A DNA stretch of 64,000 nucleotides from Leptolyngbya boryana PCC 6306 (GTDB taxonomy: Bacteria > Cyanobacteriota > Cyanobacteriia > Leptolyngbyales > Leptolyngbyaceae), in assembly GCF_000353285.1 (NCBI RefSeq), contig NZ_KB731324.1:1382577-1446576 (forward strand), written 5' to 3'. The notes beneath the pieces are model-generated. The model was not told where the DNA came from and searched no databases. It saw only the letters and a list, made by a program, of their open reading frames with translations. This document shows, one piece after another, positions 25,636 to 60,000 of this stretch. Every line of letters starts with the position of its first letter. Position 1 is the first letter of the stretch. Both the position numbers and the translations under genes were made by a program.

Positions 25636-25663
25636 GGATCGTCCGCGCCGAAGACGGAATGCC
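25636..25663 (+). promoter_or_regulatory. Late leader element, copy 1
   Basis: Reading with the gene: GGATCG-TCCG-CGCC-gaaga-CGGA-ATGCC. TCCG can pair with CGGA. It ends 18 nt before the ATG at 25682 and no Shine-Dalgarno sequence lies between. It is the only copy on the plus strand and it points toward a SAP-domain gene, as four other copies do. In this copy both hairpin arms are changed together (T and A in place of C and G). Confidence 0.85.
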
Positions 25664-25681
25664 AAGACATTATCCCCCCTC

Positions 25682-26419
25682 ATGGCAATCGTTAAAGATC
25701 TTCGCCTCCAAGCCAAAGCCAGAAAAATTAAAGGCTGGAGCCGGATGAATAAAGCTCAGTTGATGTCTGCGCTGGGCGTGACCGAACAGCCCGTAAAGAA
25801 ATCTGCTTCACTTGGAGACGCACGGGCGCGGGCGACCGCGAAAAAGTCAGGATTCGCTAAGTCGTATGCTGCTCAGAAACTGGCTGAGAAGTTAGGGGGA
25901 GAGCATCACAAGGAAGCGATCGTTAAAACAATTTCAATCGCACTCAAGAATGCTGAGAGACTAAAGCGAAGCAAACTCACGCCTGAAGAGAAAAGAGATG
26001 CTGCGGTGAGTGCGATTAAGAGCTATGCACAAAAGCAACGAAACCAAGCAAAAGCTGAAGCAAAGGGCGAAAGTCGCACCGATGTGCTTAGAGCAAAATA
26101 CGGGGATTCAACGAATCAAGCAGTGCTACAACGATATCGCGAGATGTCGCCTGCTCAACGACGCAAGCATGAAGGATTGATCGACAATCTAGAACGCGGA
26201 GCTTCGATCGATCATGACGCACGAACGACAGGTAGTAATTATATTGGCGCGGCAGGGCTAAGAGGCGAAAGACCAAAAAGCTCTGCTCAAAAGTCACTCG
26301 ATCGCTACAGAGCGAAAAAACGCAATCGAGCAATGTCGCCTGAAGAAAAGCGGACTCGGCGGCAGAGTCGGCGCGAGAATCGAAAGGAGGGAAGAGCACT
26401 CGACGGCTTTAGGTTCTAG
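25682..26419 (+). CDS. SAP-domain late protein A
   Basis: 245 residues, very basic. Residues 3-32 are a SAP/Rho-N-like helical domain (LRLQAKARKIKGWSRMNKAQ then LMSALGV). Residues about 45-120 hold the second domain shared by this set (DARARATAKKSG, SYAAQKLAEKLGG, LTPEEKRDAAVSAI). The C-terminus is Arg/Ser-rich and probably disordered. Headed by leader copy 1. Probably a DNA-binding virion or assembly protein. Confidence 0.7.
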   Translation: MAIVKDLRLQAKARKIKGWSRMNKAQLMSALGVTEQPVKKSASLGDARARATAKKSGFAKSYAAQKLAEKLGGEHHKEAIVKTISIALKNAERLKRSKLTPEEKRDAAVSAIKSYAQKQRNQAKAEAKGESRTDVLRAKYGDSTNQAVLQRYREMSPAQRRKHEGLIDNLERGASIDHDARTTGSNYIGAAGLRGERPKSSAQKSLDRYRAKKRNRAMSPEEKRTRRQSRRENRKEGRALDGFRF

Positions 26420-26438
26420 CAGTCTCGCGGGTTGTACG

Positions 26439-26744
26439 CTAAAGAAGATCCCCTTCTTCAAGTCCAGGAACCTCGTAGCTTTCCACAATGTTTTTGCCCT
26501 TGAGGATCGTCACTTCGTAGAACGAGGGTAGATCGTGAAGGGCAGAATCGATATCGATCGCGGTCGTACTGTCAAGGTAGATCGAATGACCAAACGCGCC
26601 CGACGATCGCGAGAGATCCTGTTTTAGGCACTCAATTAGATCGGCATCTCCTTTGAATTGGACGGCTTCGGCTTCATTACCATTCTCAACATCAAGACTC
26701 AGTTCTGCTGTTACACCGATGCTTTCAACTTGCCAAACAATCAT
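26439..26744 (-). CDS. Conserved acidic phage protein
   Basis: 101 residues, strongly acidic. The middle (FKGDADLIECLKQDLSRSSG, FGHSIYLDSTTAIDI) resembles a small protein found next to phage head genes. ATGA-coupled to the metallopeptidase gene before it, so the two products are likely made together. Function unknown. Confidence 0.65.
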   Translation of the reverse strand: MIVWQVESIGVTAELSLDVENGNEAEAVQFKGDADLIECLKQDLSRSSGAFGHSIYLDSTTAIDIDSALHDLPSFYEVTILKGKNIVESYEVPGLEEGDLL

Positions 26745-28220: not shown

Positions 28221-28250
28221 TCGCATTCCGTCTTCAGGCGCGGACGTTCC
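28221..28250 (-). promoter_or_regulatory. Late leader element, copy 2
   Basis: Gene sense: GGAACG-TCCG-CGCC-tgaaga-CGGA-ATGCG, ending 20 nt before the GTG at 28201. The TCCG/CGGA pair is again jointly changed relative to most copies. No Shine-Dalgarno sequence follows. Confidence 0.85.
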
Positions 28251-28277
28251 TAAGAGCTAGATTACCCTCACCATTCA

Positions 28278-28666: not shown

Positions 28667-28814
28667 AAACCTCTCGCTCCTCCTAACACGAGGATAACAG
28701 CAGATCATTAATCATCGAATTTGACTCCAAAATCGATACCCAAAGCCTTCTCGATTTTTCTCAAACTGACAGTTAATTTGGGCAACCTGAAGATAGTTTT
28801 TCCAGGTCTAAAAC

Positions 28815-40378: not shown

Positions 40379-40403
40379 GTTTGCTTGTCGCAAAGTAGAA
40401 GCT

Positions 40404-40428: not shown

Positions 40429-40434
40429 TGTCGG

Positions 40435-41541: not shown

Positions 41542-41546
41542 GTGAT

Positions 41547-42940: not shown

Positions 42941-42967
42941 GCATCCCGTCTATGGCGCGGGCGTTCC
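42941..42967 (-). promoter_or_regulatory. Late leader element, copy 3 (coat gene)
   Basis: Gene sense: GGAACG-CCCG-CGCC-ataga-CGGG-ATGCG, ending 20 nt before the ATG at 42919. Shortest loop of the set. No Shine-Dalgarno sequence before the most highly expressed virion gene. Confidence 0.88.
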
Positions 42968-43737: not shown

Positions 43738-43766
43738 GGCATCCCGTCTTGAGGCGCGGGCGTTCC
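43738..43766 (-). promoter_or_regulatory. Late leader element, copy 4 (scaffold gene)
   Basis: Gene sense: GGAACG-CCCG-CGCC-tcaaga-CGGG-ATGCC, ending 21 nt before the GTG at 43716. No Shine-Dalgarno sequence follows. Confidence 0.85.
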
Positions 43767-44109: not shown

Positions 44110-44153
44110 TTGCAGATATTAGATTGAAACTACTTTCAAAATTCCCACAGTTG

Positions 44154-45791: not shown

Positions 45792-45811
45792 GTTCTGGGG
45801 GACAAGTCAGA

Positions 45812-45841
45812 GGCATCCCGCCTATCCGGCGCGGGCGTTCC
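45812..45841 (-). promoter_or_regulatory. Late leader element, copy 5 (portal gene)
   Basis: Gene sense: GGAACG-CCCGC-gccggatag-GCGGG-ATGCC; here the stem gains a fifth pair (C-G) by a change on the 3' side. Ends 20 nt before ATG; the spacer has CCCCCAGAAC. Preceded by a palindromic terminator. Confidence 0.88.
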
Positions 45842-45842
45842 G

Positions 45843-45862
45843 AAAAAGACTACTAGTCTTTT
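45843..45862 (-). terminator. Palindromic terminator before the portal leader
   Basis: AAAAGACTA-G-TAGTCTTTTT on the minus strand, containing the stop of SAP protein C. Leader copy 5 begins at once after the T run, so transcription may restart or resume there. Confidence 0.75.
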
Positions 45863-46878: not shown

Positions 46879-46901
46879 TGATAGAAGATTAGAAACGAAC
46901 T

Positions 46902-46932
46902 GGCATCCCATCTTGTGCGGCGTGGGCGATCC
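46902..46932 (-). promoter_or_regulatory. Late leader element, copy 6 (SAP protein C)
   Basis: Gene sense: GGATCG-CCCA-CGCC-gcacaaga-TGGG-ATGCC. The fourth pair is A-T instead of G-C, changed on both arms, the strongest single sign of pairing. Ends 23 nt before ATG. Confidence 0.88.
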
Positions 46933-46940
46933 GTGAGGTA

Positions 46941-48302
46941 CTAAGATTCAAGCTTCTGTTTCAGCGATTGATACGCTTCCTGCACTCGGCGGAACTCAGC
47001 AGGTGAACCACCGCGATCGGGGTGGGCTTTTGCCGCTGCTTTACGGTAGGCTTTTTTGAGTTCAGTAGCATTCGGTTTTTTCTTTAATCCGAGTGCCTTC
47101 ATTGAATTTACTGTTTCATCACCTGCGCGTCCTTCATGGATTGCTTTTAAATGATCGCGCAAGATTTCGGTCGATCGTTCTTCGATCAATTGCTTTTGCT
47201 TGGTTTTGCTACGAGTTTGAGCTTGAGCAGATTGGCTTACGGTAAAGCCTGTACCCTTCCCGCCTTCAACATGACGCATTACAGCTTCAACATCGCTTCT
47301 ATCAGCTTTGTCTAAACCTCTTGCGGCAAAGCTTCTGTTTTGAGCCAGAGTTTCTTTCATCACTTGCTCAGCATCTTTATCAACATTTTTCAACCGTTTT
47401 GAGAAAAGCTCAACATCGCCATTCGCCTGCTCTATAGCTTTATTAAGTTTTTTGATTTTCTTTTCTTTAGAATCAGGAGACATCCGCGAACTAGCTTTTG
47501 TTTTAGCAATCTCTTGGGTAGCGTTCTCGATTGTGCGTTTTGCGTCGTTTACATAATGCTCATATGTTCTTTTGTATGCCGCAGCGTTAGATCCAGCATA
47601 CTTTTTAGCAATCTGGTCGTCGGTTAAAGTTCGAGCCTCTTTTTCAGCCTCTTTTTTAGCTTTTGCAATTTCAGCGGGGGTTGCTTCTCTGGAGTGAGAT
47701 CCCAAATTAAGCTTTCTATTGACAATAGCTTCAACAGTTCCCGCATGGTGTGCTTTTTTCAACTCTCGCGCACGATACTCTTTCGCGAATGCCTTCACAT
47801 CATCATCACTAGGATTTGCGGAAGCATACTTATCCTCTAAGGTTTGCTTTCCACTTTTCGCCTTCTTGCGTTTCTGTTGAGCCTGAGTCATTTTGCCGCC
47901 AGTCGGGACGATCGCCCTACCTTTCGCCGCATGGCGCATTGCTTTCACTTCGCCGGAAATTGCCTTCACTGCTGCCTTACGCTTTTCCTGAACCGTGAGC
48001 TTGCGTCCTAGAGCCTTTTCCTGAGCCTTGAGTTCTTTAGCGACGGATTTGATCAGTCTTGCCTTAATTTCAGCCCGCTTTCCCTCGTTTCCTGCACCGA
48101 ATTTTTCTGCTAACTTGTCCGCCGCATAAGTTTTAGCGACTCCCGATTTTTGTGCGGTGGCGCGAGCGCGAGCATCACCTTTCGGGCGCGCTGATTTTTC
48201 GCTGACTCCCAAGGCTGACATCAATTGAGCCTTGTTCATTTTTGAGTAGCCTTTGATTTTGCGGGCTTTGGCTTGAGAGCGAAGCTGTTGAACGGTTGCC
48301 AT
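46941..48302 (-). CDS. SAP-domain late protein D with C-terminal J domain
   Basis: 453 residues. SAP-like domain 4-34 and the shared helical domain (KTYAADKLAEKFGAGNEGKR, LTVQEKRKAAVKAI) match protein C closely. A long coiled region follows. The last 55 residues are a J domain with an intact HPD (AHPDRGGSPAEFRRVQEAY). It would recruit host DnaK, perhaps to the head or to the genome after injection. Confidence 0.78.
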   Translation of the reverse strand: MATVQQLRSQAKARKIKGYSKMNKAQLMSALGVSEKSARPKGDARARATAQKSGVAKTYAADKLAEKFGAGNEGKRAEIKARLIKSVAKELKAQEKALGRKLTVQEKRKAAVKAISGEVKAMRHAAKGRAIVPTGGKMTQAQQKRKKAKSGKQTLEDKYASANPSDDDVKAFAKEYRARELKKAHHAGTVEAIVNRKLNLGSHSREATPAEIAKAKKEAEKEARTLTDDQIAKKYAGSNAAAYKRTYEHYVNDAKRTIENATQEIAKTKASSRMSPDSKEKKIKKLNKAIEQANGDVELFSKRLKNVDKDAEQVMKETLAQNRSFAARGLDKADRSDVEAVMRHVEGGKGTGFTVSQSAQAQTRSKTKQKQLIEERSTEILRDHLKAIHEGRAGDETVNSMKALGLKKKPNATELKKAYRKAAAKAHPDRGGSPAEFRRVQEAYQSLKQKLES

Positions 48303-48323
48303 CGACGGGGGCGAGTGAGTTGT

Positions 48324-48353
48324 GGCATTCCGTCTATCTGGCGCGGACAGTCC
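48324..48353 (-). promoter_or_regulatory. Late leader element, copy 7 (SAP protein D)
   Basis: Gene sense: GGACTG-TCCG-CGCC-agataga-CGGA-ATGCC, 21 nt before ATG. Upstream, GGGCATCCT (48361-48369) can pair with AGGACTGTCC, an alternative hairpin that would open the first. Confidence 0.88.
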
Positions 48354-48372
48354 TACGGTTCAGGATGCCCGA

Positions 48373-50511
48373 TTAAGAGAGTCCTGCGACGGGTTTCTGG
48401 GTTTGCTGTTTGCGAGATCGCCCTTGCTGGCGGTATGGGAACAAGTCATGAACCAAGTACCCGTAGGCATCGCTAATATGACTCAGCCGCGCATCACGCT
48501 TTTTATCGATCTTTCCATCTGGTGTCCACTGCACATTTTCAAAGTCCTGAACTAAGCGATCGCACTTCTCCACTAGCACAAACGCTCGATCACTCATAAA
48601 CAGATAGTTCACCGAGATTACTCGCTCTTGTTCTGGGGGATTCGCATCTTTATAGCGCTTGCGGCATTGCGACTTGAGTTCCAATCGTCGCATCGTTGCC
48701 CAGAAAATATCCCAGTTACTTTGAGTACTGTTCGCGGTTTGGTTGCGTCCCGTCGCATCTCCGTGAACGTGAATCGTGTTTCGATGCCCTAATGACTTAA
48801 TCCAGCTCCCGACCGCTTCTGTGAGCCTAAACGTATCTGAATTGTCGAGATACCATTCTGCGATCGCGAAAACTTCATTGCCTCGCACCTGAGCAGCAAC
48901 GGCACACGCAGGGCTTCTGTTCCAGTCAAAGCTAATGTGCAGGTCAAGATTCGGATCATAGCTAAAGTCGATCGCGTCTTGCCCTCTCAGTCCGTGCGTT
49001 GCTCGATTGAACTTCTCGTAAGGTCGATTCGTTTGGCGCAGCGCCAAGTAAATCAGGGCTTGAGTTAAGGCTCCGGTCTGATCCTCAGATTCGGCGTTGG
49101 GGAAGTCTTCGAGTTCTTTCTTCAGTCCACTGACCCATAGAGCCTCACTTTCCGGTGGGATAAAGACTTTTCCTAGCTTGAAAAGTCCTGTAACAGCTTG
49201 AGCTTTTCCGCCTTCGGTATCGCCATTAAAATCGGTTGCCGTGATGGTAATTGGGCAGTCTGACGACAGGTTTTCTAGGATTGCTTTGCCGTTTTTCTTG
49301 GCTTCAATGAATAGCTCATGAATAGTGATTCCGAGTTTTGCCCACTTCTCGGTGAGATCTGAGATCGCATCTTTGGTATCGAGAAACGATAAGCGATCGC
49401 GCACTTGATCAAGCAGATAGTAACTTCCACCGCTGCGCCCCCACACTTGCAGCGTCACATAGCTTGAAGCTGAGACTTCTTTGAATTTGGAATTGAGGGA
49501 GATGATGACACGATCGAACTTGCGAGGGAGCAACACCCAGTAGTGGAACCAGTCCTGATTGAAAAGGTTTCCGCCTTCACGGCTTGGACTGCATTGAAAC
49601 AAGCTTGACCAATCGTAGGGACCAACTGAAGCCTTGATGCGTTCAAGTTCTTCCAGTGGGTATTTGCCTTCCCAAAGTGCCTCGCCGGGTTGTCTTGGAT
49701 CGTCGGGGTGAAGGTCATCAGTCGCGATCGCGGGAAATTTTACGACTGTCCATTGATCGGCTTTGGGGTTTTCCCTTGCGACTTTTAGTAGCCTTCCAGC
49801 GATGTCATCATGATGCCACGGTGTCATGACCAAAATGATCTTTGCACCCTTCTCCGCTCTAGTTCTAAACGTGGATGTGTACCACTCCCAAATTCCATCT
49901 CTTACTGTTTTTGATTCCGCCTCTTCCCTGTTTTTAAAAACGTCATCCAGAATACCCAAATCGAAGCCCATCCCGGTAATTCCTCCCCCGACCCCAGCGC
50001 TTCGATACCCACCTTGATGCCCTACAATCTCAAAGATTTCGGAGTTTCGTAGATAGCTTCCCTTTGCATCAGAAGAAACATTTTTACTGTTGAGTGTCGT
50101 ATCCGGGAAAAGCTCTCGATAGGTAGGGGTATCAATAATTCGTTGTACGTCCCGGTTTAATCGACTACCAAGATCGGCAGAATAAGAACACGCAATAATT
50201 CGGGTATCGGGGTTCTGACCGAGCGCAAAGGCAGGTAAACGGCGAGATACAGCTTCCGATTTTCCGTGCCGAGGAGGAACGAGGATCATTAAGCGATCGC
50301 ATTCTCCCCGCAGTGCTTTTTCAATCCAATAGCAAAATCTCTGGTGATGCCAGTTCACTTCATAGCTTGGTAGGGTGTAGCAAGTGAAATCAAGCAGTGA
50401 TTGACGCGCTCTAGCTTTGGCTTCCGCTTTGGGATCGTCAAGGCGAATCTTGCCCTTATCTCGATCTCGTTCCCAGTCCTTCTTTGCTTGCAGTAGTCCA
50501 GCAAGATTCAC
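48373..50511 (-). CDS. terL: Large terminase with two tandem nuclease domains
   Basis: 712 residues against the usual 450-550. ATPase: Walker A VPPRHGKSE (78-86), Walker B LGILDD (185-190). First nuclease domain 333-490: RVIISLNSKFKE has Asn at 340 where Asp is usual, FIEAKKNG keeps E403, and ESEDQTGAL has Gly at 480 in place of the last Asp. Second RNase-H-like domain 523-695: SFDWN (D529), HGDATGR (D585) and SHISDAYGYL (D681) are all present. GTG start overlapping the SAP gene stop. The second domain probably does the cutting. Confidence 0.9.
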   Translation of the reverse strand: MNLAGLLQAKKDWERDRDKGKIRLDDPKAEAKARARQSLLDFTCYTLPSYEVNWHHQRFCYWIEKALRGECDRLMILVPPRHGKSEAVSRRLPAFALGQNPDTRIIACSYSADLGSRLNRDVQRIIDTPTYRELFPDTTLNSKNVSSDAKGSYLRNSEIFEIVGHQGGYRSAGVGGGITGMGFDLGILDDVFKNREEAESKTVRDGIWEWYTSTFRTRAEKGAKIILVMTPWHHDDIAGRLLKVARENPKADQWTVVKFPAIATDDLHPDDPRQPGEALWEGKYPLEELERIKASVGPYDWSSLFQCSPSREGGNLFNQDWFHYWVLLPRKFDRVIISLNSKFKEVSASSYVTLQVWGRSGGSYYLLDQVRDRLSFLDTKDAISDLTEKWAKLGITIHELFIEAKKNGKAILENLSSDCPITITATDFNGDTEGGKAQAVTGLFKLGKVFIPPESEALWVSGLKKELEDFPNAESEDQTGALTQALIYLALRQTNRPYEKFNRATHGLRGQDAIDFSYDPNLDLHISFDWNRSPACAVAAQVRGNEVFAIAEWYLDNSDTFRLTEAVGSWIKSLGHRNTIHVHGDATGRNQTANSTQSNWDIFWATMRRLELKSQCRKRYKDANPPEQERVISVNYLFMSDRAFVLVEKCDRLVQDFENVQWTPDGKIDKKRDARLSHISDAYGYLVHDLFPYRQQGRSRKQQTQKPVAGLS

Positions 50512-51380
50512 GATTTCTTACCTCTAGGTTTTCTAGATCGAGGTTTGCTAATATTCCCGCCATCAACTACACCTAAGTGCTTTTTACCCTTGGCTTTAGC
50601 CCTCACTTCGCCCATTGTCGAATTGACGAATTCTTTTGCCTTGCGGTGGGCATCAAGCGAAGTCGTGCCGTCATCGTACTTCGCCCCGATCGCTTGCGCT
50701 TGGTCAAACAACTCTTTCAGGCTTGGTTCCTTTGCTCTGCCACCGTTGATCGTGCTAAGTCCACGCTTTCTTGCTTTAGCGGTTGTCATTGATGCGACTT
50801 TTTGAGCGTCAGCACCTTTTTGAATGTCATCAAGTTCCGCGATCGCGCCGAGTCCAACCTGCTCTTGTTGAGCCAGCCTCTCTAAGTCGCGAACCTTGAT
50901 CTTTCCGACTGAGCCTTTCATGGCTTGCCTTAATTCTTTTTTGCTGAGTTTCTCAACCTCTGGATCTAAGTCACGAACCTTGAGTTTCCACATCGGATCG
51001 TCTGCGGCGATTCCACCTCGCTTTTTCCTCCCCTTCGATTCAGGCTTACCCGCTTTGATTGCCTGAACTTCCTTCTGGATTGCTTTAATGGCAATTTGCC
51101 GCTTCTGCTCTTGCGATAAGTCTCCACCCGATGCTTTCAGCTCACGCGAAATCGCCCGTGTCAGCCGACCCTTGATAATGGCGCGTTGCGTTGCGTTGCC
51201 TTTCGAGAGATGCTTACTTTGAGCCTCGATCGCTTTCGACTTGCCAGAACTAAGTTTATGTTGCTTCAAGTCCTCACTCATACCCAGAGCGGAGAGATAT
51301 TGAGCCTTAGTTTTGAGTTTGGAACGATTCGGAATTTTGCGATCGCGGGCAAGTTTACGGAGTTCGACGAGAGTTGCCAT
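50508..51380 (-). CDS. SAP-domain late protein E
   Basis: 290 residues. SAP-like domain 4-34 (LRKLARDRKIPNRSKLKTKA), then the shared helical region (RAIIKGRLTRAISRELKAS, LSQEQKRQIAIKAIQ) in more diverged form, two copies of a KVRDL motif and a Lys/Arg-rich tail. Translationally coupled to terminase (GTGA), so its amount is tied to that of the packaging motor. Confidence 0.7.
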   Translation of the reverse strand: MATLVELRKLARDRKIPNRSKLKTKAQYLSALGMSEDLKQHKLSSGKSKAIEAQSKHLSKGNATQRAIIKGRLTRAISRELKASGGDLSQEQKRQIAIKAIQKEVQAIKAGKPESKGRKKRGGIAADDPMWKLKVRDLDPEVEKLSKKELRQAMKGSVGKIKVRDLERLAQQEQVGLGAIAELDDIQKGADAQKVASMTTAKARKRGLSTINGGRAKEPSLKELFDQAQAIGAKYDDGTTSLDAHRKAKEFVNSTMGEVRAKAKGKKHLGVVDGGNISKPRSRKPRGKKS

Positions 51381-51398
51381 GTTCTGGGGCGGGTCATA

Positions 51399-51428
51399 GG
51401 CATCCCGTCTATCCGGCGCGGGCGATCC
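51399..51428 (-). promoter_or_regulatory. Late leader element, copy 8 (SAP protein E / terminase)
   Basis: Gene sense: GGATCG-CCCG-CGCC-ggataga-CGGG-ATGCC, 18 nt before ATG. Upstream GGGCATCCT (51436-51444) pairs with AGGAT(C)GCCC, 9 bp with one bulge, as an alternative fold. Confidence 0.88.
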
Positions 51429-51448
51429 TGATTGCTAGGATGCCCAAT

Positions 51449-54400
51449 CTAGTTTTTTGCGAGTCGAGCCACGTCGTACAACACGTTCAACACATCCTGC
51501 TTGACTTTCGACTTCATCTGTCCTGACTGAATATCTTCACCCGTGAAGTGGTTTGTGATCGAGTTGGTCTGGTTAATCGGTTGAGCAGACGCATTCGACA
51601 ATCCCTCCATTGCTCCTTTGATATCACTCAATAGCTGAATCACTTGTCCATCTCCCCCCAGAACAGTACTACTCTGAGCAGGAAGGTTCCGCTGAACGGG
51701 TGCAACGGTCGAAACCCCCCCAGAACCGCCCACCACTTGATTAATTTGCGCTTGAATCGCCTCACGCCGTCCTGAGAACTGCTCAAATGTTGGGATCGTA
51801 GACTGCGGAACGACGATCGCCGTCGAGTCATCTGCGGCATTACGAGCTTTTTGCAAGAATTCTGCGGCAAGTACTCGATCGTCGCTCTTTGTCCGCGTGA
51901 TTTGGGCAAGGCTCGATCGTGCTTGGTCGGTTTGGAGTTCTTGACGATACTGAAGCCCTCGCCGGCGAGCATTATCGAGCGCTCCTTGTTGCCGTTCTTG
52001 CTCGTCTAAGAGCAGTCCTTGATACTGCGTTCCGACTGCGCGATCGCTTGCTGCCTGTACTGCCAACTCCTTCGCCCTTAGTTCTGCTGGAGTCGTTTTC
52101 TTATCTGCTCGCGCTTTTTCTAGTTCAGCCTGTGCCGTTGCTACATCTGCCTTGGCTTTCGATTGCTCAATCCGATTCTGAATCTGCTCTCGCAGTAGCA
52201 TCGCTTGATTTCTCTGGATCTCCAATTCCAGTGATTGACGCTCTAAGGCTTGCTCACGAGCTAAGAATGCGAGCCGCGATCGTGCCGCTTCTTCCTGAAT
52301 TCGACGCTTGCGAGATTCGGACGTGGTGAGTGATTCAGCGAGTTGATATTGCCCGCTCACATATCCCGAAATTGCCGACTGTAGATCTTTCTGGGCGTTT
52401 AGTAATGTGTTTTGACGCTCGATCGCTTTTACTTTGTAGTCCTGCGCCATTGCGGACTGTTGTAAAAGCTGCTGTTCCTGGGTGAAATTATTGATCGTTA
52501 CTTTGAGTTGCTGATCAATCCGATCTTGAATGACACGAGTTCGAGCTTCTTCGAGTGCGTATTCGTTCTTGAGGGTTTGCAAAGTTAAGTCAGCAGTCCG
52601 TTGCCTCGATGCCCGAATTTTCGCTTGTCTCGCCTCTTCCTTCACTGGATCAGAAAGTTTTGGCAGGGCTTCAAGTGCCTTGACCTTCTCTTGCTCTAGC
52701 CGCAGTTCCTCGCGGGTTGTGGCTTGCTTGGCTTGCAGGTTCAATTCGTTCGCTTCAACTTCTCGAATCTGGCGAGCATTGAGCAGCTTCTGTGTTTCGA
52801 TGTCACGCGACGTTTCCGCCATTTTCGCGACATCAAGGGCTTTTTTCTGGGCGCGATCGAGAATTGCAATTTTCTCGTTTTCGTACTTCTCGATCGCATC
52901 TACCCGCTTCTTCTGAATTTCGGCTTCACGCGCGGCGAGGGCTTCCATCCCTTCTTTGTCGTCCTTACTCAGACGCGCCCGCTCCTGTTGAATCGTTTCG
53001 GCTTCAACATTGAGCCGATCCATCGTCAATTTGAACGACTCATCGTTGAATTGCTGCTCAGAAACAAGACCTTGAGCGCGCTTCCCTTCGAGAATCTTCT
53101 GCTGTTCGTCAAAGTCTTGCAGTCGTCGATTAAAGTTCTCTTCCTGTTGTTTACGAGTGTTCTTGCCAATTTCGGCTTCGGTTTGCGAGAGCTGCTGACG
53201 TAGTTTTTTCGCGCGGTCTGATTCATTTGCTCCACCTTGAGCCAGTTCTCTTTGCAGTTCAGCATTGAGAAACTCTCGCTGTTTTTCAAGCTCAGAGCGC
53301 TTGAGTTCAGTGAGTCGCTTCGAGGCTTCTTGCTGGCTAATGTAGCCTTCGCCTAACTGTTCCTCAATCTCTAGCTGTTGCCTCTTAATTCCGTCGATTT
53401 CTTCTTGGTTCGCGGACTGAGCGAGATCAGCGATCGCTTTCTTTGCCGACTGTTGCAGAGAGAATTCAAGCTTTGTATTGTCTGCGAGTGCTTGTAAGCG
53501 CTTCTGCCCCTCTGCCTCGGTAATCGCTCCTGACTGTACCTGCTGATTGGTCAGATCGATCAGTTCTTTAGCAGCGGCTTTGAATCGTTCGGGATCGCCA
53601 CTACCTTGTTCAACAATGACTCGCTGAGCATTGTTGACCTTCTTCTCTAGCTGCTCATAAGTGTTACCAAGTCGATCAAGCTCCTTAGCCTGAAACGTAG
53701 TTTGATCAGCCGCACCTTTCGCGGCATCAGCAGTCTGATTAAACGCTTTGTTAAAGTTCTCTGCCCCTTTCGAGAAACTATTGCCTGTAAGCTTGTCGAG
53801 TTCTTTTAGTAGTGCGGTGATGACTTTGCCGATCGGGGAATTAGCGACTTCTTTTGAGATCAATTGAAGCGATGTGATCGCGGCTTTTCCGAAATTATTG
53901 GCAACCGTCATCGCTCCCCCGAACAGGTTAGCGAAGAACTTGCCGATCGGCTCTAGCGCTTTGATAGCCGCTTGCGCTGCCCCTCCGATTTGACTACCCA
54001 AGAAATTTAAGAAGGGTTGAATTGCGGCAATAGAAGCTGAGATGAATCGTTCAACATCAGCGATCGCATTTGTCCAGCCGTCCCCGAATTGATTGAAAAA
54101 GCCTTGAATCTGTAGAGCGATTCCTGCGATTGCATCTCGAACAGGCTGAGTTGCTCGAAATGCTTGCATGAACAGTCCTAAGATCGAGTCTAGAACCTGA
54201 AAGATGATGCTAAATGCCTGGATTGCAGGTGTAAGGGCGACTCCTAAAAGGGTAATTACTGGACTGAGTGTTGCTGCGACTACTTCACCAAGTTTGAGAA
54301 CGGTCTGAAAGACTGCATTAAATCCAGGCGCGATCGCTTGGGCGAGTCCTGCTACGACTCCGAAAATCGGTTTAAGATTCTGTGCGATGCTCTGACCGGA

Positions 54401-55417
54401 TAGCAAGGATTCATCAACTACGCTTTTGAAGAAACCGATCACCGCTTCACGGTTTGCTTTGATGTATTTGAATCCCGCATCGAGAGCGTTGATAACTGGC
54501 TGTAGTAATGGCTTCCCAACTTCACGACCTAAGATTTCAAATGCGTCTTGAATGTTGGATGAGATCCCTTCAATTGATTGCGCTGCGATCGCATTGCCCG
54601 CGACAAACGTTTCAAGTCGCTTATTAATCTCGTCAACTAAGGTTCCTTGAGCTTTCCATTTGTTGATCTGCTCATTCGTGATATTGAGGTTTTTCGCTAG
54701 CATCGAATTCTGATCCACGGATGAGCGGAGGATCGAATTCACCTCTTGCGCTGCTTGGCTTAGCGGTAGCCCGATCACCTTCAGGGAAGCCGCCCATCCT
54801 TTCGTGAGACTAGTTGCTGCCTGAATGGGACCAGGGAACTGCTTCGACTGATTGTTGAGTTGCGAGGCATTCTGCAACGTGATTTGAAACAGTTCGTTAA
54901 CTTGTGCAGAAGTAACACCGACGAGATCTTCTGTCTCTTTCTCAATCTGCTTTAACGCCGCTTCAAGTTGTGGTCGCGTCGATTTAATCTTCTCGGTCGG
55001 ATCTTTGATCTCAACACCATTCTTAAAAATCCGCGTTGCCGATGCGAGGTTCGTCTGAGAGCTAAGTAACTGAGCATTCAATCGCTCATTCGAGCCGATC
55101 AGGAACTCGTAAGCTGGACGTGCAGCCGCCATCATCGTTTGAACAGACTGCGTAATCTGGTTAAAGCCAAACGAAACGGCGGTGAGTGGTGAGAATAGAC
55201 CAGAGATAGCGCCAACAGCATCACCGATGCCAGACTTCATCCCACCGAATACAGCGCTTGCAGCCTTGCCGAGGCTACCTAAATTGCCTTCTAATCCCGC
55301 AAAACTAACCCCGCGATTGACTTGCGATTGAGTCGCACCGATTTCTTGATTGATCTTCTGAAGGGTAGGAGTAACTTGATCAATCAGTTTGAGAATGAGT
55401 TGGATCGGATCTGCCAC
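51449..55417 (-). CDS. Tail tape measure protein
   Basis: 1322 residues. N-terminal helical start (DPIQLILKLIDQVTPTLQKI), hydrophobic segments at about 340-530 (for example VVAATLSPVITLLGVALTP), and then more than 500 residues of charged coiled coil. The end (TNSITNHFTGEDI) is typical of tape measures. The length predicts a tail of roughly 190-200 nm using 0.15 nm per residue. No lysozyme or peptidase domain is seen in it. Confidence 0.9.
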   Translation of the reverse strand: MADPIQLILKLIDQVTPTLQKINQEIGATQSQVNRGVSFAGLEGNLGSLGKAASAVFGGMKSGIGDAVGAISGLFSPLTAVSFGFNQITQSVQTMMAAARPAYEFLIGSNERLNAQLLSSQTNLASATRIFKNGVEIKDPTEKIKSTRPQLEAALKQIEKETEDLVGVTSAQVNELFQITLQNASQLNNQSKQFPGPIQAATSLTKGWAASLKVIGLPLSQAAQEVNSILRSSVDQNSMLAKNLNITNEQINKWKAQGTLVDEINKRLETFVAGNAIAAQSIEGISSNIQDAFEILGREVGKPLLQPVINALDAGFKYIKANREAVIGFFKSVVDESLLSGQSIAQNLKPIFGVVAGLAQAIAPGFNAVFQTVLKLGEVVAATLSPVITLLGVALTPAIQAFSIIFQVLDSILGLFMQAFRATQPVRDAIAGIALQIQGFFNQFGDGWTNAIADVERFISASIAAIQPFLNFLGSQIGGAAQAAIKALEPIGKFFANLFGGAMTVANNFGKAAITSLQLISKEVANSPIGKVITALLKELDKLTGNSFSKGAENFNKAFNQTADAAKGAADQTTFQAKELDRLGNTYEQLEKKVNNAQRVIVEQGSGDPERFKAAAKELIDLTNQQVQSGAITEAEGQKRLQALADNTKLEFSLQQSAKKAIADLAQSANQEEIDGIKRQQLEIEEQLGEGYISQQEASKRLTELKRSELEKQREFLNAELQRELAQGGANESDRAKKLRQQLSQTEAEIGKNTRKQQEENFNRRLQDFDEQQKILEGKRAQGLVSEQQFNDESFKLTMDRLNVEAETIQQERARLSKDDKEGMEALAAREAEIQKKRVDAIEKYENEKIAILDRAQKKALDVAKMAETSRDIETQKLLNARQIREVEANELNLQAKQATTREELRLEQEKVKALEALPKLSDPVKEEARQAKIRASRQRTADLTLQTLKNEYALEEARTRVIQDRIDQQLKVTINNFTQEQQLLQQSAMAQDYKVKAIERQNTLLNAQKDLQSAISGYVSGQYQLAESLTTSESRKRRIQEEAARSRLAFLAREQALERQSLELEIQRNQAMLLREQIQNRIEQSKAKADVATAQAELEKARADKKTTPAELRAKELAVQAASDRAVGTQYQGLLLDEQERQQGALDNARRRGLQYRQELQTDQARSSLAQITRTKSDDRVLAAEFLQKARNAADDSTAIVVPQSTIPTFEQFSGRREAIQAQINQVVGGSGGVSTVAPVQRNLPAQSSTVLGGDGQVIQLLSDIKGAMEGLSNASAQPINQTNSITNHFTGEDIQSGQMKSKVKQDVLNVLYDVARLAKN

Positions 55418-55436
55418 GGGTCAAAACGGTAAGGGC

Positions 55437-55466
55437 GCATCCCGTCTTGTGTGGCGCGGGCGATCC
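55437..55466 (-). promoter_or_regulatory. Late leader element, copy 9 (tape measure)
   Basis: Gene sense: GGATCG-CCCG-CGCC-acacaaga-CGGG-ATGCG, 18 nt before the GTG at 55417. Its first base is the last base of the endonuclease stop codon. Confidence 0.88.
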
Positions 55467-56842
55467 TAGTCCTCAGAGTTCCCTAACCTCTGCTTCTCGC
55501 ATTGAACACAGCCGCGACTCGATCGATATCTCAGTCCATAACCCGACAGATTGTATTCATGCCCTCTTCTGCAAACATCTCCAATTCGATAAGGGGTTCC
55601 ATCAAGATCAGGAAAGAGTTTCGATGTTAATTCCAGCCAATACGCGACCGGAACCATTGGTTTCTTAACGCCTTGACATTCCTGTCCGCACTTGACGCAA
55701 CTCCCATGCCCTACACGCCTGAGTGATTGTCCTGTCCCCTGATAATCGTGACCACGTTTGCACAATCGACCGAGATAGACTCTAGACGGATCGAAGGTGT
55801 GAACCATCACAGGCGTTCTCAGTTCTTCAAGTCTTTGCTGTTTGAGATCAAAGTTCGCTTGCACCTTATCCCACTTTCGCCGCATTCCAGGGATATCAAG
55901 CCTTAAAATCTCCTTGGCTAACAGTTCGGCGCGGTAGTCTCCAATCATGTAGTTGTAGATTTTGCCCTTCTGGATCAATTGTGCAAGCGGTCGCTTCTTG
56001 GTCCGCCATTCATCGGTATACTGCGGTGCAACCTCATCGCAAACAGATTTAATCCAAGATAAGCACTCCAGTGTTCCGCAGAACGTAAAATTCATGCGCC
56101 CATTTTTCCGGATATGAACGCATCCATCGCCATCCAAGAAGCCTTTGATATAAGCAAGTGAGCAATCTAGATTGAGGTTGTTCGGCGGTTTCAGTGTCAA
56201 GCTTTTGCGGGGCGTAATGTTGAAGTGTTTTTCGAGATCAGGAAACCATTCCTGAGTACAACTAATTGACAGTACAGATTCGGGTCTTGCTCTTAATCGC
56301 CTTCCATCTGCCATTTTGCGATCCCTCGCCTTCCTGATTGCAACATCCCCAGTAAACTCAACATCTTTGGCAAACTGCTCTAAGAGATATCCATCAGATT
56401 CGGTCAAGCTGATCATTAAAACCTTGGTAGAGCAGTCATCACGATCGGTAACGCATCCGTCCGCCGCAATCAATCCCGCCCAGTACGAATTTAGGATGTT
56501 TGGCTGAGCAAAAAACTGGCGGTTCGCAGAGTGCTTGCAAGCCCATCGCTCCCCGGAAACCCCTATCTCGCAAATTCTTTTCTGAATTGCCGCAAGCGTC
56601 CTCCCCGACAACATCCTCTTGATTTGAGTTGCTGTTTTGTGAGGGAAGTTGTCACGCAGAATCTGATCTTCCTGCTCAGTCCAGTAGTTCTTATCTGGGA
56701 GTAATCCAACCTTAAAGGCTCTCAGGTGAACCCCTTTCACTGTTCTATGTGGCAGCAGTGCTGCTACCTCCTCGATCGACATCTTGCCGCAGTTGTCCCG
56801 CAAGACTTGCATCTCCCATCCTTCCCAAAGCTTTCCGCCCAT
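55466..56842 (-). CDS. LAGLIDADG-type homing endonuclease with zinc-ribbon repeats
   Basis: 458 residues from the ATG at 56842; a longer TTG start at 56902 would overlap the -35 box. N-terminal Myb/SANT-like repeats (KMSIEEVAALLPHRTVKGVH; ATQIKRMLSGRTLAAIQKRI). Two LAGLIDADG helices: YWAGLIAADGCV and YIKGFLDGDGCV. The C-terminus has two C-x-x-G-H...C-x-x-C ribbons (LCKRGHDY...CVKC; VCRRGHEY...CVQC). A free-standing selfish gene between tail chaperone and tape measure, with its own promoter and no late leader. Confidence 0.85.
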   Translation of the reverse strand: MGGKLWEGWEMQVLRDNCGKMSIEEVAALLPHRTVKGVHLRAFKVGLLPDKNYWTEQEDQILRDNFPHKTATQIKRMLSGRTLAAIQKRICEIGVSGERWACKHSANRQFFAQPNILNSYWAGLIAADGCVTDRDDCSTKVLMISLTESDGYLLEQFAKDVEFTGDVAIRKARDRKMADGRRLRARPESVLSISCTQEWFPDLEKHFNITPRKSLTLKPPNNLNLDCSLAYIKGFLDGDGCVHIRKNGRMNFTFCGTLECLSWIKSVCDEVAPQYTDEWRTKKRPLAQLIQKGKIYNYMIGDYRAELLAKEILRLDIPGMRRKWDKVQANFDLKQQRLEELRTPVMVHTFDPSRVYLGRLCKRGHDYQGTGQSLRRVGHGSCVKCGQECQGVKKPMVPVAYWLELTSKLFPDLDGTPYRIGDVCRRGHEYNLSGYGLRYRSSRGCVQCEKQRLGNSED

Positions 56843-56873
56843 CGCAACGCCTAGATTATCGAAACACTGCCTT

Positions 56874-56902
56874 ATTTTATCCAAATATTTGGGGTTTACC
56901 AA
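56874..56902 (-). promoter_or_regulatory. Promoter of the homing endonuclease with palindromic operator
   Basis: Minus strand TTGGTA (56902-56897), 17-bp spacer, TAAAAT (56879-56874). The spacer holds the perfect palindrome CCAAATATTTGG (56881-56892). Another inverted repeat, GGGTTT-accaatt-AAACCC, overlaps the -35. The divergent XRE gene is the likely repressor. Confidence 0.65.
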
Positions 56903-57001
56903 TTAAACCCGAATTATGTGCTAGTTTTGGTTAAAGCATTAAAACAGTTGGGGTAGTCCAAGGAGCGTAGTATGTTAACCACTGGTGTTCAAGTGGTTGC
57001 G

Positions 57002-57235
57002 ATGAAACTTTCTTTTTCTCAATGGCTTAAATTGCGTCGTGATATTGCAGGTGTAACTCAGGCTCAAATTGCACAAGAGTTAAAGGTTAGACCGCAAACG
57101 ATCAGCAATTGGGAGAAAGGCGTTTCTAATCCCAGTCTCGATCCGGATCAGACACTCAAACTTTGCTTGTTGCTCAAGATTACCCTCGAAGATTTGGCAA
57201 AAGGTTTCAGAGGAGAAATCACACTTGATGATTAG
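57002..57235 (+). CDS. XRE-family regulator
   Basis: 77 residues starting at MKLSFSQ. HTH: DIAGVTQAQIAQELKVRPQT, then ISNWEKG, the standard XRE recognition helix. Divergent from the endonuclease. It is read against the virion block and should control its own cargo operon of three genes. Confidence 0.8.
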   Translation: MKLSFSQWLKLRRDIAGVTQAQIAQELKVRPQTISNWEKGVSNPSLDPDQTLKLCLLLKITLEDLAKGFRGEITLDD

Positions 57236-57641
57236 AAGCAAAGGAAAAATCGCGATCGCATTAACCCTCTCACTTAGTGCGGTCACATTTCAGCCGAGGG
57301 AAGCAAGATCAAACCCCGCTTTAGTTGCTCCTGCGGCGTGTGCCACGGGGGTTGGATGCGTTCTTGTTGGTGTTGCGGTAGTTGGAGGTCTTGCCTATTA
57401 TGTTTGGCAGGGCAACAACCCCAAATCGCAGCGTCACTACGATCGGATTGAAGATCCGGAGGAAGAAGCTCGGTATCTGGGTGGACCACATGAAACGGAA
57501 CCTGTGATCGCTGGAACAATTAAGGACGCAAGAAGAAAGTGCGAACAACTTGCTAGAGGTCGCAGAATCAAGGAAGTTCGATGGTTTCAGGGTAATCGAT
57601 GGGATTGTGTTTTCTATACAGGAGGGCAAAATGAACGCTAG
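57228..57641 (+). CDS. Small membrane or secreted protein
   Basis: 137 residues. A signal-like N-terminus (KIAIALTLSLSAVTFQP), a second hydrophobic stretch (CATGVGCVLVGVAVVGGLAYYVW) and a soluble tail with two Cys. The tail resembles that of the secreted protein at 31101. Overlaps the XRE gene end by 8 bp. Confidence 0.6.
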   Translation: MIRSKGKIAIALTLSLSAVTFQPREARSNPALVAPAACATGVGCVLVGVAVVGGLAYYVWQGNNPKSQRHYDRIEDPEEEARYLGGPHETEPVIAGTIKDARRKCEQLARGRRIKEVRWFQGNRWDCVFYTGGQNER

Positions 57642-57996
57642 TCAACTTCACCCACTACAAGTTTCTGTACATGACTGGACGATTCCAGGCACACCTGTTT
57701 GGACGGATGCCCAAGGGTTTCTTTGTCCTGAACTAGAATCACCCAAGCCCGGTCAAACTGTGATCTATGTGGACTATGAGAAGGATTCAGAAGATGCGCT
57801 TATTCAGGCTGATGTTGAATTGGCGATCGATGCTCTAGGATATCCAGCCGGATCAAGATGGATTGGTCGAAGCTCGCATGATGTCGATAACGTCGTTTCG
57901 TATGTTGGCATGTTTCCGACTGACCAAGTTGAACAGCACCTAGATAAACTCAGTAAGGTGATTCCGATATCGTTTCTGGTTTGTCTAAACGGCTAA
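57631..57996 (+). CDS. Hypothetical protein
   Basis: 121 residues, GGAGG before ATG. Acidic alpha-beta protein (VIYVDYEKDSEDALIQADVE). Third gene of a small rightward operon inserted in the virion block. Role unknown; superinfection immunity is possible from context only. Confidence 0.55.
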   Translation: MNASQLHPLQVSVHDWTIPGTPVWTDAQGFLCPELESPKPGQTVIYVDYEKDSEDALIQADVELAIDALGYPAGSRWIGRSSHDVDNVVSYVGMFPTDQVEQHLDKLSKVIPISFLVCLNG

Positions 57997-58016
57997 CGCC
58001 ATCGTAAAGTCTTCTC

Positions 58017-58043
58017 CCTGCCTCATTCTTGAGGCAGGTTTTT
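58017..58043 (+). terminator. Terminator of the rightward cargo operon
   Basis: CCTGCCTCA-ttct-TGAGGCAGG, a 9-bp perfect stem, followed by five T. Confidence 0.9.
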
Positions 58044-58051
58044 AATGCCCA

Positions 58052-58086
58052 CAAAAAAGCGACTCACGGGATTTTCCGCAAGTCGC
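58052..58086 (-). terminator. Terminator of the tail-tube operon
   Basis: GCGACT and AGTCGC close a stem with an inner CGGG/CCCG-like pairing; six T follow on the minus strand. It separates the tail-tube genes from the endonuclease cargo. Confidence 0.8.
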
Positions 58087-58107
58087 AGTGCTGGTCTCTA
58101 TCCCGAT

Positions 58108-58500
58108 TCACCGCCGTCTGCGGGGTTGCTGAAATCCTTGATTCGGTTTTACTGGCTTCGACTGACCATATAGCGCCTTTCCTGCCTCAGTCGTAATCGT
58201 TGTCAAGTCCGCGATCGACATTCCCACCCCAAACGATGGGCGCTTCGTCGGATGGTCAAACCATGCCAGATCCTCGCTGATTGCCGGAAATAGCGACACC
58301 AAACCGTAAGCCAATCGCTTGATATAGTCTGGATCGCCTAAATTTTTCATGATGTTTCGAGCCAGCCTCGGATCGTTGAGATCCGGCATTGCTCCGTCAT
58401 TTCCTAGCAGCACCGAAGCAAGAGGCATGTAACCTGTATCGTTCAGGCTATTCGTTTCTAGAACTGTTCCATTTGAGAGTGTGACTTTGAGGGCTGCCAT
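58108..58500 (-). CDS. Probable tail assembly protein
   Basis: 130 residues. Position (second gene after the tail tube, overlapping TGATG with the first) fits the second tail assembly chaperone. The C-terminus is basic (QQPRRRR). Contains NIMKNLGDPDYIKRLAYGL. No sequence match claimed. Confidence 0.5.
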   Translation of the reverse strand: MAALKVTLSNGTVLETNSLNDTGYMPLASVLLGNDGAMPDLNDPRLARNIMKNLGDPDYIKRLAYGLVSLFPAISEDLAWFDHPTKRPSFGVGMSIADLTTITTEAGKALYGQSKPVKPNQGFQQPRRRR

Positions 58501-59129
58501 CAGAAAAATACTCCGCCTGCTTGGGCTAACTGTGCTTCTATCGTTTCTCGATTCTTCTCGAAAAGTTCCCGATCGCGCTGCTGTTGTAACTCTTTCAGTG
58601 CTTCCTCGCCCCGTGTCAGATTCTGAGTTTGAGCCAGGATATTGATTAAATCCGATCTGGAATACTGCCGAGTTAATGTGATCGCGCTTTCCTTAAAGCA
58701 CATCTGCAACGCTGCAACTAAATCCGCGTCATCATCCCCGCTGGTCAAATAAACCTGATCCGAGGGCGATTCAGTCGGAAGTTGATAACCCATGAGCTTT
58801 TCAAGCCCCGATAAGTCGGGCACTTGCTGTTCTGGGGTTAGGGGATGATTAACAATGCCTTCGCAGATGAAGAAGCGATGCCGATCGACCGATTGAAGTT
58901 CGCTTGGGTCAAGGTTTGGCTTCAATCGGCTGGCAACCTCCTCATACAGATATCTGAACTCCTCGAACAGCACTAAGTCTGTCCGTGAGTCGTAATAGCC
59001 ATGAAAATCTTGCACCTGCTGTAATAGCTCCGAGTGATAGGCTCTAATCTCATGCGATCGAGCAAACACCGGAGCCATTACAAACAAGACGCGCCCATTC
59101 GATAGCTGAAGTCGAAAGGATGCTTTCAT
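58500..59129 (-). CDS. Probable tail assembly chaperone
   Basis: 209 residues. It follows the tail tube by 0 bp and precedes a second small gene that overlaps by 1 bp, the usual place of tail assembly chaperones. Helical C-terminus (LKELQQQRDRELFEKNRET). Assignment by context. Confidence 0.5.
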   Translation of the reverse strand: MKASFRLQLSNGRVLFVMAPVFARSHEIRAYHSELLQQVQDFHGYYDSRTDLVLFEEFRYLYEEVASRLKPNLDPSELQSVDRHRFFICEGIVNHPLTPEQQVPDLSGLEKLMGYQLPTESPSDQVYLTSGDDDADLVAALQMCFKESAITLTRQYSRSDLINILAQTQNLTRGEEALKELQQQRDRELFEKNRETIEAQLAQAGGVFF

Positions 59130-59948
59130 CTAGCAGGCATTGAGCAGAGAAGTATCTACAATGTCAAATCCCAATCCAGAAGCGCTCTGAGGGCTTTGCA
59201 GAATCGTCAGCTTGATCGTCCGTTCCGAGGTATCTGCCAGCGGTGCGCTTTCAGTCCGAGAACACGACCAGATCGAAACCAAGCGAGCCTTGTTATCGAA
59301 CGATACGCCTTGAGCGAAGATGCTGACGAGTCCTAGCGGTTCTGCCGTGACGATCGTTGCATTCGACACGGAACAAGGAACCCAAGCTTGAATATCGACC
59401 GCTTTCGCTTCGAGTTCAGGGCTGAATGTGAATAGCATTCCTGCACCGATCGAGCACTCGTCATCTACCAAGGTGTCCGAAGCATCTTTGACCGTCACTT
59501 TCACGGCAAGCTTTGTGTCAGGATCAATGTAGGTCACGAGTGCTTTGCTTGTCGCCTCGGTTTGAGCCAGCACCGAATTGCCGATCGTGCCTGACGGACG
59601 CGCGCCAGGTGGGTCGGCTGAGTTGAATTCAGCAAATACCATCACTTCGGTTGCACCACTTGCCTGCGCCACGATTTTGCCGTGCATCAAGGCTTCAAGT
59701 TCCATCACGGCTCCCGAAAACTTGATTTCAACCTCTGGCTCTGAGCCTTCGGGGTAGGTCAGACCGATGACTTTCCGACCGTCGCAGGCTTTCACCATGC
59801 GCTTCTCGATTTGGTCATTTGGGTTAATGGTCATTTCTTCAGGCGGAGCCGCGATCGCGATCGGAACAAGGGTTGGAACGCCACCGACTCGCACTTGGCG
59901 GAAGATTCCACAGCGGGTGATGGTTCTGAAACACTGAATCAGAGACAT
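59130..59948 (-). CDS. Probable major tail tube protein
   Basis: 272 residues, beta-rich (EPEVEIKFSGAVMELEALMHGK; KLAVKVTVKDASDTLVD). First gene of the tail block, headed by leader copy 10 and followed by chaperone-like genes and tape measure, as for tail tubes. Family-level identity not proven. Confidence 0.65.
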   Translation of the reverse strand: MSLIQCFRTITRCGIFRQVRVGGVPTLVPIAIAAPPEEMTINPNDQIEKRMVKACDGRKVIGLTYPEGSEPEVEIKFSGAVMELEALMHGKIVAQASGATEVMVFAEFNSADPPGARPSGTIGNSVLAQTEATSKALVTYIDPDTKLAVKVTVKDASDTLVDDECSIGAGMLFTFSPELEAKAVDIQAWVPCSVSNATIVTAEPLGLVSIFAQGVSFDNKARLVSIWSCSRTESAPLADTSERTIKLTILQSPQSASGLGFDIVDTSLLNAC

Positions 59949-59971
59949 TTAAATTGAACGGGGAAACTGTA

Positions 59972-60000
59972 GCATCCCGTCTGTGTGGCGCGGGCGTTCC
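59972..60000 (-). promoter_or_regulatory. Late leader element, copy 10 (tail tube)
   Basis: Gene sense: GGAACG-CCCG-CGCC-acacaga-CGGG-ATGCT, 22 nt before ATG. Upstream GGGCATTC (60015-60022) can pair with GGAACGCCC as an alternative fold, as in copies 7 and 8. Confidence 0.88.

What the first reader, a model, noticed from the sequence alone, without database searches (positions are those of the whole stretch)
25636..60000. Ten-copy structured leader element in front of the late gene blocks
Seen directly: ten copies of GGAnnG-YCCR-CGCC-(5-9 nt)-YGGR-ATGC at 25636(+), 28221, 42941, 43738, 45812, 46902, 48324, 51399, 55437 and 59972 (all minus except the first). Each ends 18-23 nt before an ATG or GTG. 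None of the ten spacers contains a Shine-Dalgarno core, whereas many early genes of the same element have GGAGG or GAGGAG. The arms co-vary: CCCG/CGGG, TCCG/CGGA (copies 1, 2, 7), CCCA/TGGG (copy 6), and an added pair in copy 5. Genes without a copy are mostly coupled to the gene in front by overlapping stop and start codons. Inference: an RNA hairpin that replaces the ribosome-binding site, or is the target of a phage translation or anti-termination factor, and that defines a late regulon. I know no described element of this form.
Basis: partly seen in the sequence, partly recalled or inferred. Interest (0 to 1): 0.93.

Follow-up and report, generated by a model that had tools for sequence, protein, structure and literature searches.

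The report
Structured RNA leader of late phage genes
A virus integrated in a cyanobacterium's chromosome carries a dozen copies of a small folded RNA signal just in front of its particle-building genes, mostly right behind what looks like a virus-specific start site for making the RNA, and it probably controls how those genes are turned into protein.

Summary
All ten copies are exact (10 found, 0.05 expected). The 7.26-Mb genome has 12, all in this prophage, plus a degenerate one. Related prophages in three other genomes, and one copy in a fourth, carry it, often before the same genes (capsid, tape measure). The YCCR/YGGR arms covary: in the strict search, which allows mismatched arms, 19 of 19 hits pair, and so do all copies of this prophage. 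Loop length varies. An RNA structure is well supported; a second helix, making a pseudoknot, is moderately supported.

First, 27 of 35 copies have GGGNANNNT upstream, mostly 6-8 nt before the core. The same motif occurs without a core 22-30 nt before other start codons more often than control motifs, so it is probably a separate phage promoter and the core the transcript's 5' leader. Second, in some leaders of relatives the GGGATGC strand can pair with GCATCCC at the start codon, but not in this prophage. Best reading: a post-transcriptional, probably translational, leader of late genes. Function untested. No Rfam match; none found in print.

The parts
25636..25662 (+). core element copy 1 (arms TCCG/CGGA), before Rho_N-like gene 25682-26419
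28223..28250 (-). core copy 2 (TCCG/CGGA), before gene 28201-26741
42941..42967 (-). core copy 3 (CCCG/CGGG), before major capsid protein 42919-41594; no promoter motif
43739..43766 (-). core copy 4 (CCCG/CGGG), before probable scaffold gene 43716-42979 (weak match); no promoter motif
45813..45841 (-). core copy 5 (CCCG/CGGG plus possible extra C-G pair), before portal 45791-44154; no promoter motif
46903..46932 (-). core copy 6 (CCCA/TGGG), before Rho_N gene, start 46878; no promoter motif
48325..48353 (-). core copy 7 (TCCG/CGGA), before Rho_N/DnaJ gene 48302-46941
51400..51428 (-). core copy 8 (CCCG/CGGG), before gene 51380-50508, which overlaps the terminase large subunit gene
55437..55466 (-). 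core copy 9 (CCCG/CGGG), before probable tape-measure gene 55417-51449 (by size and position)
59972..60000 (-). core copy 10 (CCCG/CGGG), before gene 59948-59130
25621..25631 (+). promoter-like motif GGGNANNNTRR of copy 1
28257..28267 (-). promoter-like motif of copy 2
48360..48370 (-). promoter-like motif of copy 7
51435..51445 (-). promoter-like motif of copy 8
55473..55483 (-). promoter-like motif of copy 9
60012..60022 (-). promoter-like motif of copy 10 (longer spacing, 13 nt)
28780..28790 (+). candidate promoter motif without core, 26 nt between its T and the start of ORF 28815
44136..44146 (-). candidate promoter motif without core, 28 nt between its T and the start of ORF 44109-43774
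24964..24974 (-). candidate promoter motif without core, 29 nt between its T and the start of ParA-like ORF 24936-23494

Best explanation
A cis-acting structured RNA leader of the late genes of a small family of cyanobacterial prophages. A phage-specific promoter (GGGNANNNT) starts the transcript at or next to the core; the core folds through the YCCR/YGGR helix, probably as an H-type pseudoknot with a short GG/CC helix; it ends about 20 nt before the start codon of messages that (in this prophage) have no Shine-Dalgarno sequence, and acts there after transcription, most likely on translation initiation and perhaps through a protein that reads the conserved unpaired bases. Shown by sequence: the element, its placement, the covariation of its arms, the promoter-like motif as a separate unit. 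Inferred: transcription start, pseudoknot, translational role, binding protein.
For: 12 exact copies in the genome, all in this prophage, reversed-pattern control 0. Copies before orthologous genes in related prophages. Strict search: 19 of 19 hits pair at both variable arm positions. Arms in 22 aligned copies: 88 of 88 cells paired, slid controls 19-51%. 35 curated copies: 135 of 140 cells, 0 of 20000 shuffles, also within genomes; the within-genome signal comes from this prophage (52 of 52; 1 of 5000 shuffles). GG/CC helix: 90 of 128 cells, reached by 110 of 20000 free and 182 of 20000 within-genome shuffles; both helices on A5 82.4% paired, slid controls 29-49%. Eight of 35 copies lack the promoter motif yet keep their place before a start codon, which favours action after transcription. 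No SD in 13 of 13.
Against: Free-energy folding gives the YCCR/YGGR helix little weight in presumed late transcripts: group means 0.01-0.22 in G000, G039, G017 and G124; only the single G007 copy is high, 0.97. It would need the pseudoknot, a protein or co-transcriptional folding. Five of 35 copies miss the fourth pair; within G039, G017 or G124 alone shuffles show no covariation. Three G017 copies lack GGA, CGCC and AG. The GG/CC helix rests partly on G124 copies whose junction I set by eye, and its outer A is mostly opposite G. The start region is no more open than in other genes. No expression data; no trans-acting factor found.
Confidence: 0.57

Rival explanations
1. A promoter-dependent RNA switch like that of some T4 late genes: read-through transcripts pair the promoter's GGGC with GYCC, leaving GGRATGC free to pair with the start region and hide it; transcripts begun at the late promoter lack GGGC, so YCCR takes that strand instead.
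For: A significant complement of the GGGATGC strand lies before the start codon in 6 of 9 G039, 3 of 8 G017 and 1 of 3 G124 leaders tested; in some it takes in an SD. GGGC-GYCC pairing is favoured in modelled read-through RNA of G039 and G017 promoter copies (means 0.85, 0.78). T4 precedent: passages of PMC2988022 and PMC3014915.
Against: Not in this prophage: 0 of 12, Fisher p 0.83. GGGC-GYCC is weaker in G000 (0.54) and G124 (0.08). Modelled access to the start hardly differs between late and read-through RNA in G000, G039 and G017 promoter copies (0.51/0.50, 0.34/0.34, 0.46/0.46); it falls in G124 (0.32 to 0.23) and in the one G007 copy (0.73 to 0.59). GGG does not vary with the arm.
Confidence: 0.2
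2. A DNA element: the whole thing is a promoter or operator for a phage transcription factor.
For: The upstream GGG motif looks like a promoter: 15 of 123 occurrences have a start codon 22-30 nt on, against a mean of 1.3% and a maximum of 3.8% for the 63 other triplets in place of GGG. In G017 terminator-like hairpins lie 26-51 nt upstream of three motif-core pairs.
Against: The motif is separable from the core. The core's loop varies from 7 to 12 nt in the long form and is 4 nt in the short form, unlike a site for a protein dimer; the arms covary; 8 of 35 copies lack the motif. Terminator-like sites in L248 are not clearly enriched (24 against 19.6, sd 5.1).
Confidence: 0.12
3. A put- or nut-like antitermination RNA (recalled systems) at the start of each late transcription unit.
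For: Structured RNA near the presumed 5' end; terminator-like hairpins before some G017 units.
Against: Placement close to start codons and copies without a promoter motif are not expected for antitermination; terminator-like sites in the window's late region are no more common than in shuffles (23 against 25.0).
Confidence: 0.07
4. A 5' mRNA stability structure that hides the transcript end.
For: The core begins about where the transcript should start: 7-8 nt after the motif's T in 17 of 27.
Against: Eight copies have no such promoter motif and still keep their distance to the start codon.
Confidence: 0.1

Closest known systems
[quoted passage not shown] passages seen)
   Same: A repeated phage-specific signal before the start codons of a set of genes, in part combined with an upstream promoter-like element; role unknown.
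   Different: SAS is a 13-bp sequence that contains an SD core, within a few nt of the start, in non-structural genes; its authors see little support for the ESAS repeats as RNA hairpins. Here the core is structured, lies about 20 nt away, heads structural genes, and this prophage's copies have no SD.
T4 late-gene leaders (e, soc, I-TevI; passages of PMC2988022, PMC3014915)
   Same: A late promoter beside an RNA structure near the start codon.
   Different: There a hairpin hides the SD or start in early transcripts; in this prophage neither SD nor hiding hairpin is found. Some leaders of relatives come nearer.
T4 gene 32 autoregulatory pseudoknot (mentioned in a passage of PMC3014915; details recalled)
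   Same: A pseudoknot upstream of a phage start codon.
   Different: One copy, for autoregulation; here a dozen copies head many genes and no binding protein is known.
Phage N4 virion RNA polymerase hairpin promoters (recalled)
   Same: Small hairpins as repeated phage signals.
   Different: Recalled as a 5-7 bp stem with a 3-nt loop in DNA; here 4 bp with a 7-12 nt loop in the long form.

Membership tests
SAS (cluster K mycobacteriophages) | GGGATAGGAGCCC with up to 2 mismatches, a few nt before starts | tested here: not met
   2 matches in the window at 52939 and 60720, 0.84 expected, 20 of 100 shuffles reach 2; neither is at an element
ESAS | 17-bp imperfect inverted repeats with SigA-like -35/-10 | not tested
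   No search for such repeats was made; the sigma-70-like sites listed for 40400-60100 lie at no element
T4 e/soc/I-TevI type leader | SD or start sequestered in a hairpin | tested here: not met
   In this prophage: SD in 0 of 13; significant complement before the start in 0 of 12. In relatives 6 of 9, 3 of 8 and 1 of 3 have such a complement
T4 e/soc/I-TevI type leader | Late promoter within the 5' strand of the structure | tested here: inconclusive
   The motif's GGGC can pair with GYCC but shows no covariation; no mapped transcript ends
Rfam 15 families | Covariance-model match at the gathering score | tested here: not met
   Only a tRNA at 4667-4738 in the window; none in L248, L250, L251, L322, L323
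H-type pseudoknot (structural class) | Two interleaved helices | tested here: inconclusive
   YCCR/YGGR helix strong, GG/CC helix moderate and partly dependent on by-eye junctions

The most novel reading that the evidence does not exclude
A phage late regulon defined at the level of translation: a pseudoknotted leader in a dozen copies stands in for the Shine-Dalgarno sequence and is switched on by a phage-encoded RNA-binding protein, with late promoter and leader arranged so that only transcripts begun at the late promoter are translated; each phage lineage keeps its own version of the arms.
Probability: 0.2. Interest if true: 0.9.

Novelty: new variant of a known kind. Interest (0 to 1): 0.72.

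Why it matters
Phages are known to time late genes by promoters, sigma factors and antitermination (recalled). A structured RNA repeated in front of many late genes, without an SD and mostly behind its own promoter type, would be a distributed control layer on translation. It would also give a handle on how cyanobacteria start translation on SD-less messages, and a multi-copy RNA family whose arms have changed together across several host genomes.

Tried and rejected
Similarity of the core to 16S rRNA: longest words shared with the host 16S are no longer than for shuffled cores (sense 7.14 against 7.27, antisense 7.06 against 7.20, over 35 cores).

I took them as chance. Only the 99 viral stretches were rescored: 50 rows at E<=0.5, best 30.9 bits in seven stretches with the same score; I did not inspect them. 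Narrower patterns gave 3 and 30 viral stretches, promoter-plus-core patterns 0 and 5; not inspected singly. So presence elsewhere in viral contigs is not excluded.

Portal: 4 of 58 genomes; G001 and G003, 24 and 23% identical, show no core at E<=10 in the 20 kb taken from each. Capsid by order: 3 of 42 genomes, and 1 of 36 in G124's order.

Class search (20 of 388 genomes at E<=0.05): hits below about 30 bits are probably chance, except the CRISPR-spacer hit in G009 and the weak G039 copy at C45:8986. G103 (L261, 34.2 bits) and G269 (L262, 32.6 bits) are single copies and undecided. L261 and the spacer L268 are rows of A5 and count; they are not among the 35 curated copies.

GGGC with GYCC as a conserved helix: GGG does not vary among the copies that have the motif, so covariation cannot test it.

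A trans-acting factor: 40 protein entries against Pfam (39 distinct, one from G017) and 40 against PHROGs gave no sigma factor, RNA polymerase or antiterminator. An HU-like protein (68% over 90 aa) and the integrase are shared with G124. Many ORFs were not scanned.

Biases: the 35 copies were chosen by hand from pattern, model and same-gene positions, and the model and two scripts reward paired arms; the three short G017 forms came from the promoter-motif list. The promoter motif was fixed after I had looked at copies and at G124 gene starts, so one search is not an independent test. In one search the start was set wrong in all three G124 leaders (6 too far, 2 short, 1 too far) and one G017 leader (1 short); one G000 (degenerate) and one G039 leader were left out. 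In one search the script chose doubtful starts for L250:8989 and L252:777. Two wrong starts were mended. MAFFT misplaced at least two rows of A5.
Full report
Observation. The first half of the element, GGANNGYCCRCGCC, occurs ten times exactly in the window, 0.05 expected, none of 100 shuffles reaching ten. With the second arm and ATGC the same ten places are found. The 7.26-Mb genome has twelve, all within C1:1408212-1459218, i.e. in and next to the window; the pattern read backwards has none. A degenerate thirteenth copy stands before a gene just outside the window (start at joined coordinate 66318) whose relative in G039 (44% identical) also has a copy. The window has 80 GCGATCGC sites, 2.9 expected; that this word marks cyanobacteria is recalled.

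Context. Genes with a copy include the major capsid protein and portal (PHROG matches), a probable scaffold gene (E 0.009, and its relatives' position), a probable tape measure (by size and position), and proteins that begin with a Rho_N-like stretch (two above and two below Pfam's cut-off). In this prophage the starts lie 19-24 nt after the core, 18 at the degenerate copy. SD core: 0 of 13 element genes, 12 of 33 hand-picked others; anti-SD energies p 0.002; start regions more C-rich (p 0.004) but no more open (p 0.77).

Relatives. Of 194 genomes searched, the window's own included, three have strict copies: G000 12, G039 6, G007 1. A model from 22 copies in 388 genomes of the class found 12 in G000, 10 in G039, 3 in G017, 1 in G007, and single or paired weaker hits in others, 20 of 388 genomes in all at E<=0.05. 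The capsid protein occurs in 4 of 388 genomes: G000, G017, G039, G124, the others 64, 57 and 51% identical to the window's. It has no match in 50,697 phage records. So this is a small family. Cores sit before the capsid and tape-measure genes in all four (the G039 tape-measure gene is cut by the contig and recognised by eye), before the 59130-type gene in three, and before the scaffold gene in two.

Covariation. Alignment of 22 copies: 88 of 88 cells paired, 15 double changes, slid controls 19-51%. Over 35 curated copies 135 of 140 cells pair; no shuffle of 20000 reaches this, free or within genomes. Taken alone, this prophage gives 52 of 52 (1 of 5000 shuffles as high), while G039, G017 and G124 alone give no signal (5000, 737 and 3343 of 5000). 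The fourth pair takes G-C, A-U, U-A and C-G; five copies miss it. A model hit in genome G009 lies in a spacer of a CRISPR array (repeats every 71-84 nt) and has arms CTCA/TGAG, a change on both sides of the second pair. Its E-value, 0.006 for one genome, is not significant over 388.

Pseudoknot. The GG at the 5' end can pair with the CC of CGCC, with YCCR between them: an H-type pseudoknot. Over 32 long-form copies 90 of 128 S1 cells pair, matched by 110 of 20000 free and 182 of 20000 within-genome shuffles. Two of three G124 copies have the third pair as C-G instead of G-C, but these are two of the three copies whose junction I set by eye; within genomes that position alone gives nothing (6618 of 20000). 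Both helices on A5: 82.4% paired, slid controls 28.7-49.0%. A register one base further out scores a little higher, 96 of 128, because the A opposite G drops out; the GG/CC core is common to both. Support is moderate.

Promoter motif. 27 of 35 copies have GGGNANNNT upstream; its T lies 6-8 nt before the core in 19 of 27. A similar motif (GGG, not G, A, three bases, T, two purines) has a start codon 22-30 nt on in 15 of 123 occurrences in the joined prophage sequences, against a mean of 1.3% and a maximum of 3.8% for the 63 other triplets in place of GGG; distances peak at about 24-31 and 48-59 nt. Its A and T fit positions 2 and 6 of a -10 box (recalled), which would put the transcript start at the core. 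Sigma-70-like sites are fewer than in shuffles in the window's late region (4 against 15.3) but not in L248 of G017 (13 against 14.5). I read the motif as a phage-specific promoter separate from the RNA element; no transcript data exist here.

Second partner. The GGGATGC strand has a significant complement before the start codon in 6 of 9 G039, 3 of 8 G017 and 1 of 3 G124 leaders tested, in 0 of 12 of this prophage, and p 0.07 in the one G007 copy (starts were set a few bases wrong in the three G124 and one G017 leader). Folding gives the YCCR/YGGR helix little weight in late RNA, group means 0.01-0.22, except the one G007 copy (0.97), and access to the start hardly differs between late and read-through RNA in G000, G039 and G017 promoter copies. 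That speaks against the simplest switch.

Literature. Closest in concept are the SAS/ESAS of cluster K mycobacteriophages (passages of PMC3203893, PMC11373665, PMC12699233) and T4 late leaders (passages of PMC2988022, PMC3014915). The listings of searches showed no paper that seemed to describe this element; I opened none of those papers, and the library lacks most subscription journals.

Verdict. A real, apparently undescribed structured RNA element of a small family of cyanobacterial prophages, most likely a post-transcriptional leader of late genes. Mechanism unproved.

Noticed in passing
window 25682-26419, 45853-46878, 46941-48302, 50508-51380; L254:5332-7089: Five proteins share a similar N-terminal stretch (Rho_N match in four, two of them below Pfam's cut-off; the one at 50508 by eye), each headed by a core element; one also carries a DnaJ domain.
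   Followed up: partly
L268:1490-1532 (genome G009): A CRISPR spacer that resembles the element with arms CTCA/TGAG, a possible sign of a further phage of this family.
   Followed up: partly
window 55466-56902: LAGLIDADG-like gene whose last base is the first base of core copy 9.
   Followed up: no
window 63225-63500: HU-like DNA-binding protein, 68% identical over 90 aa to one in the G124 contig.
   Followed up: no
L248 11696-11723, 13245-13272, 17056-17069 (-): In G017, terminator-like hairpins lie 26-51 nt upstream of three motif-core pairs, so these units look like terminator, promoter, leader, gene; such sites are not clearly enriched over shuffles there.
   Followed up: partly
G017 joined coordinates 80228(+), 81635(+), 60412(-): Short form of the element: GCCC, a short loop, GGGATGC, without GGA, CGCC and AG, behind the same promoter motif.
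   Followed up: partly
L254:13189-13218 and L257:709-735: Copies before short ORFs of 55 and 64 aa that look like small membrane proteins by eye.
   Followed up: no
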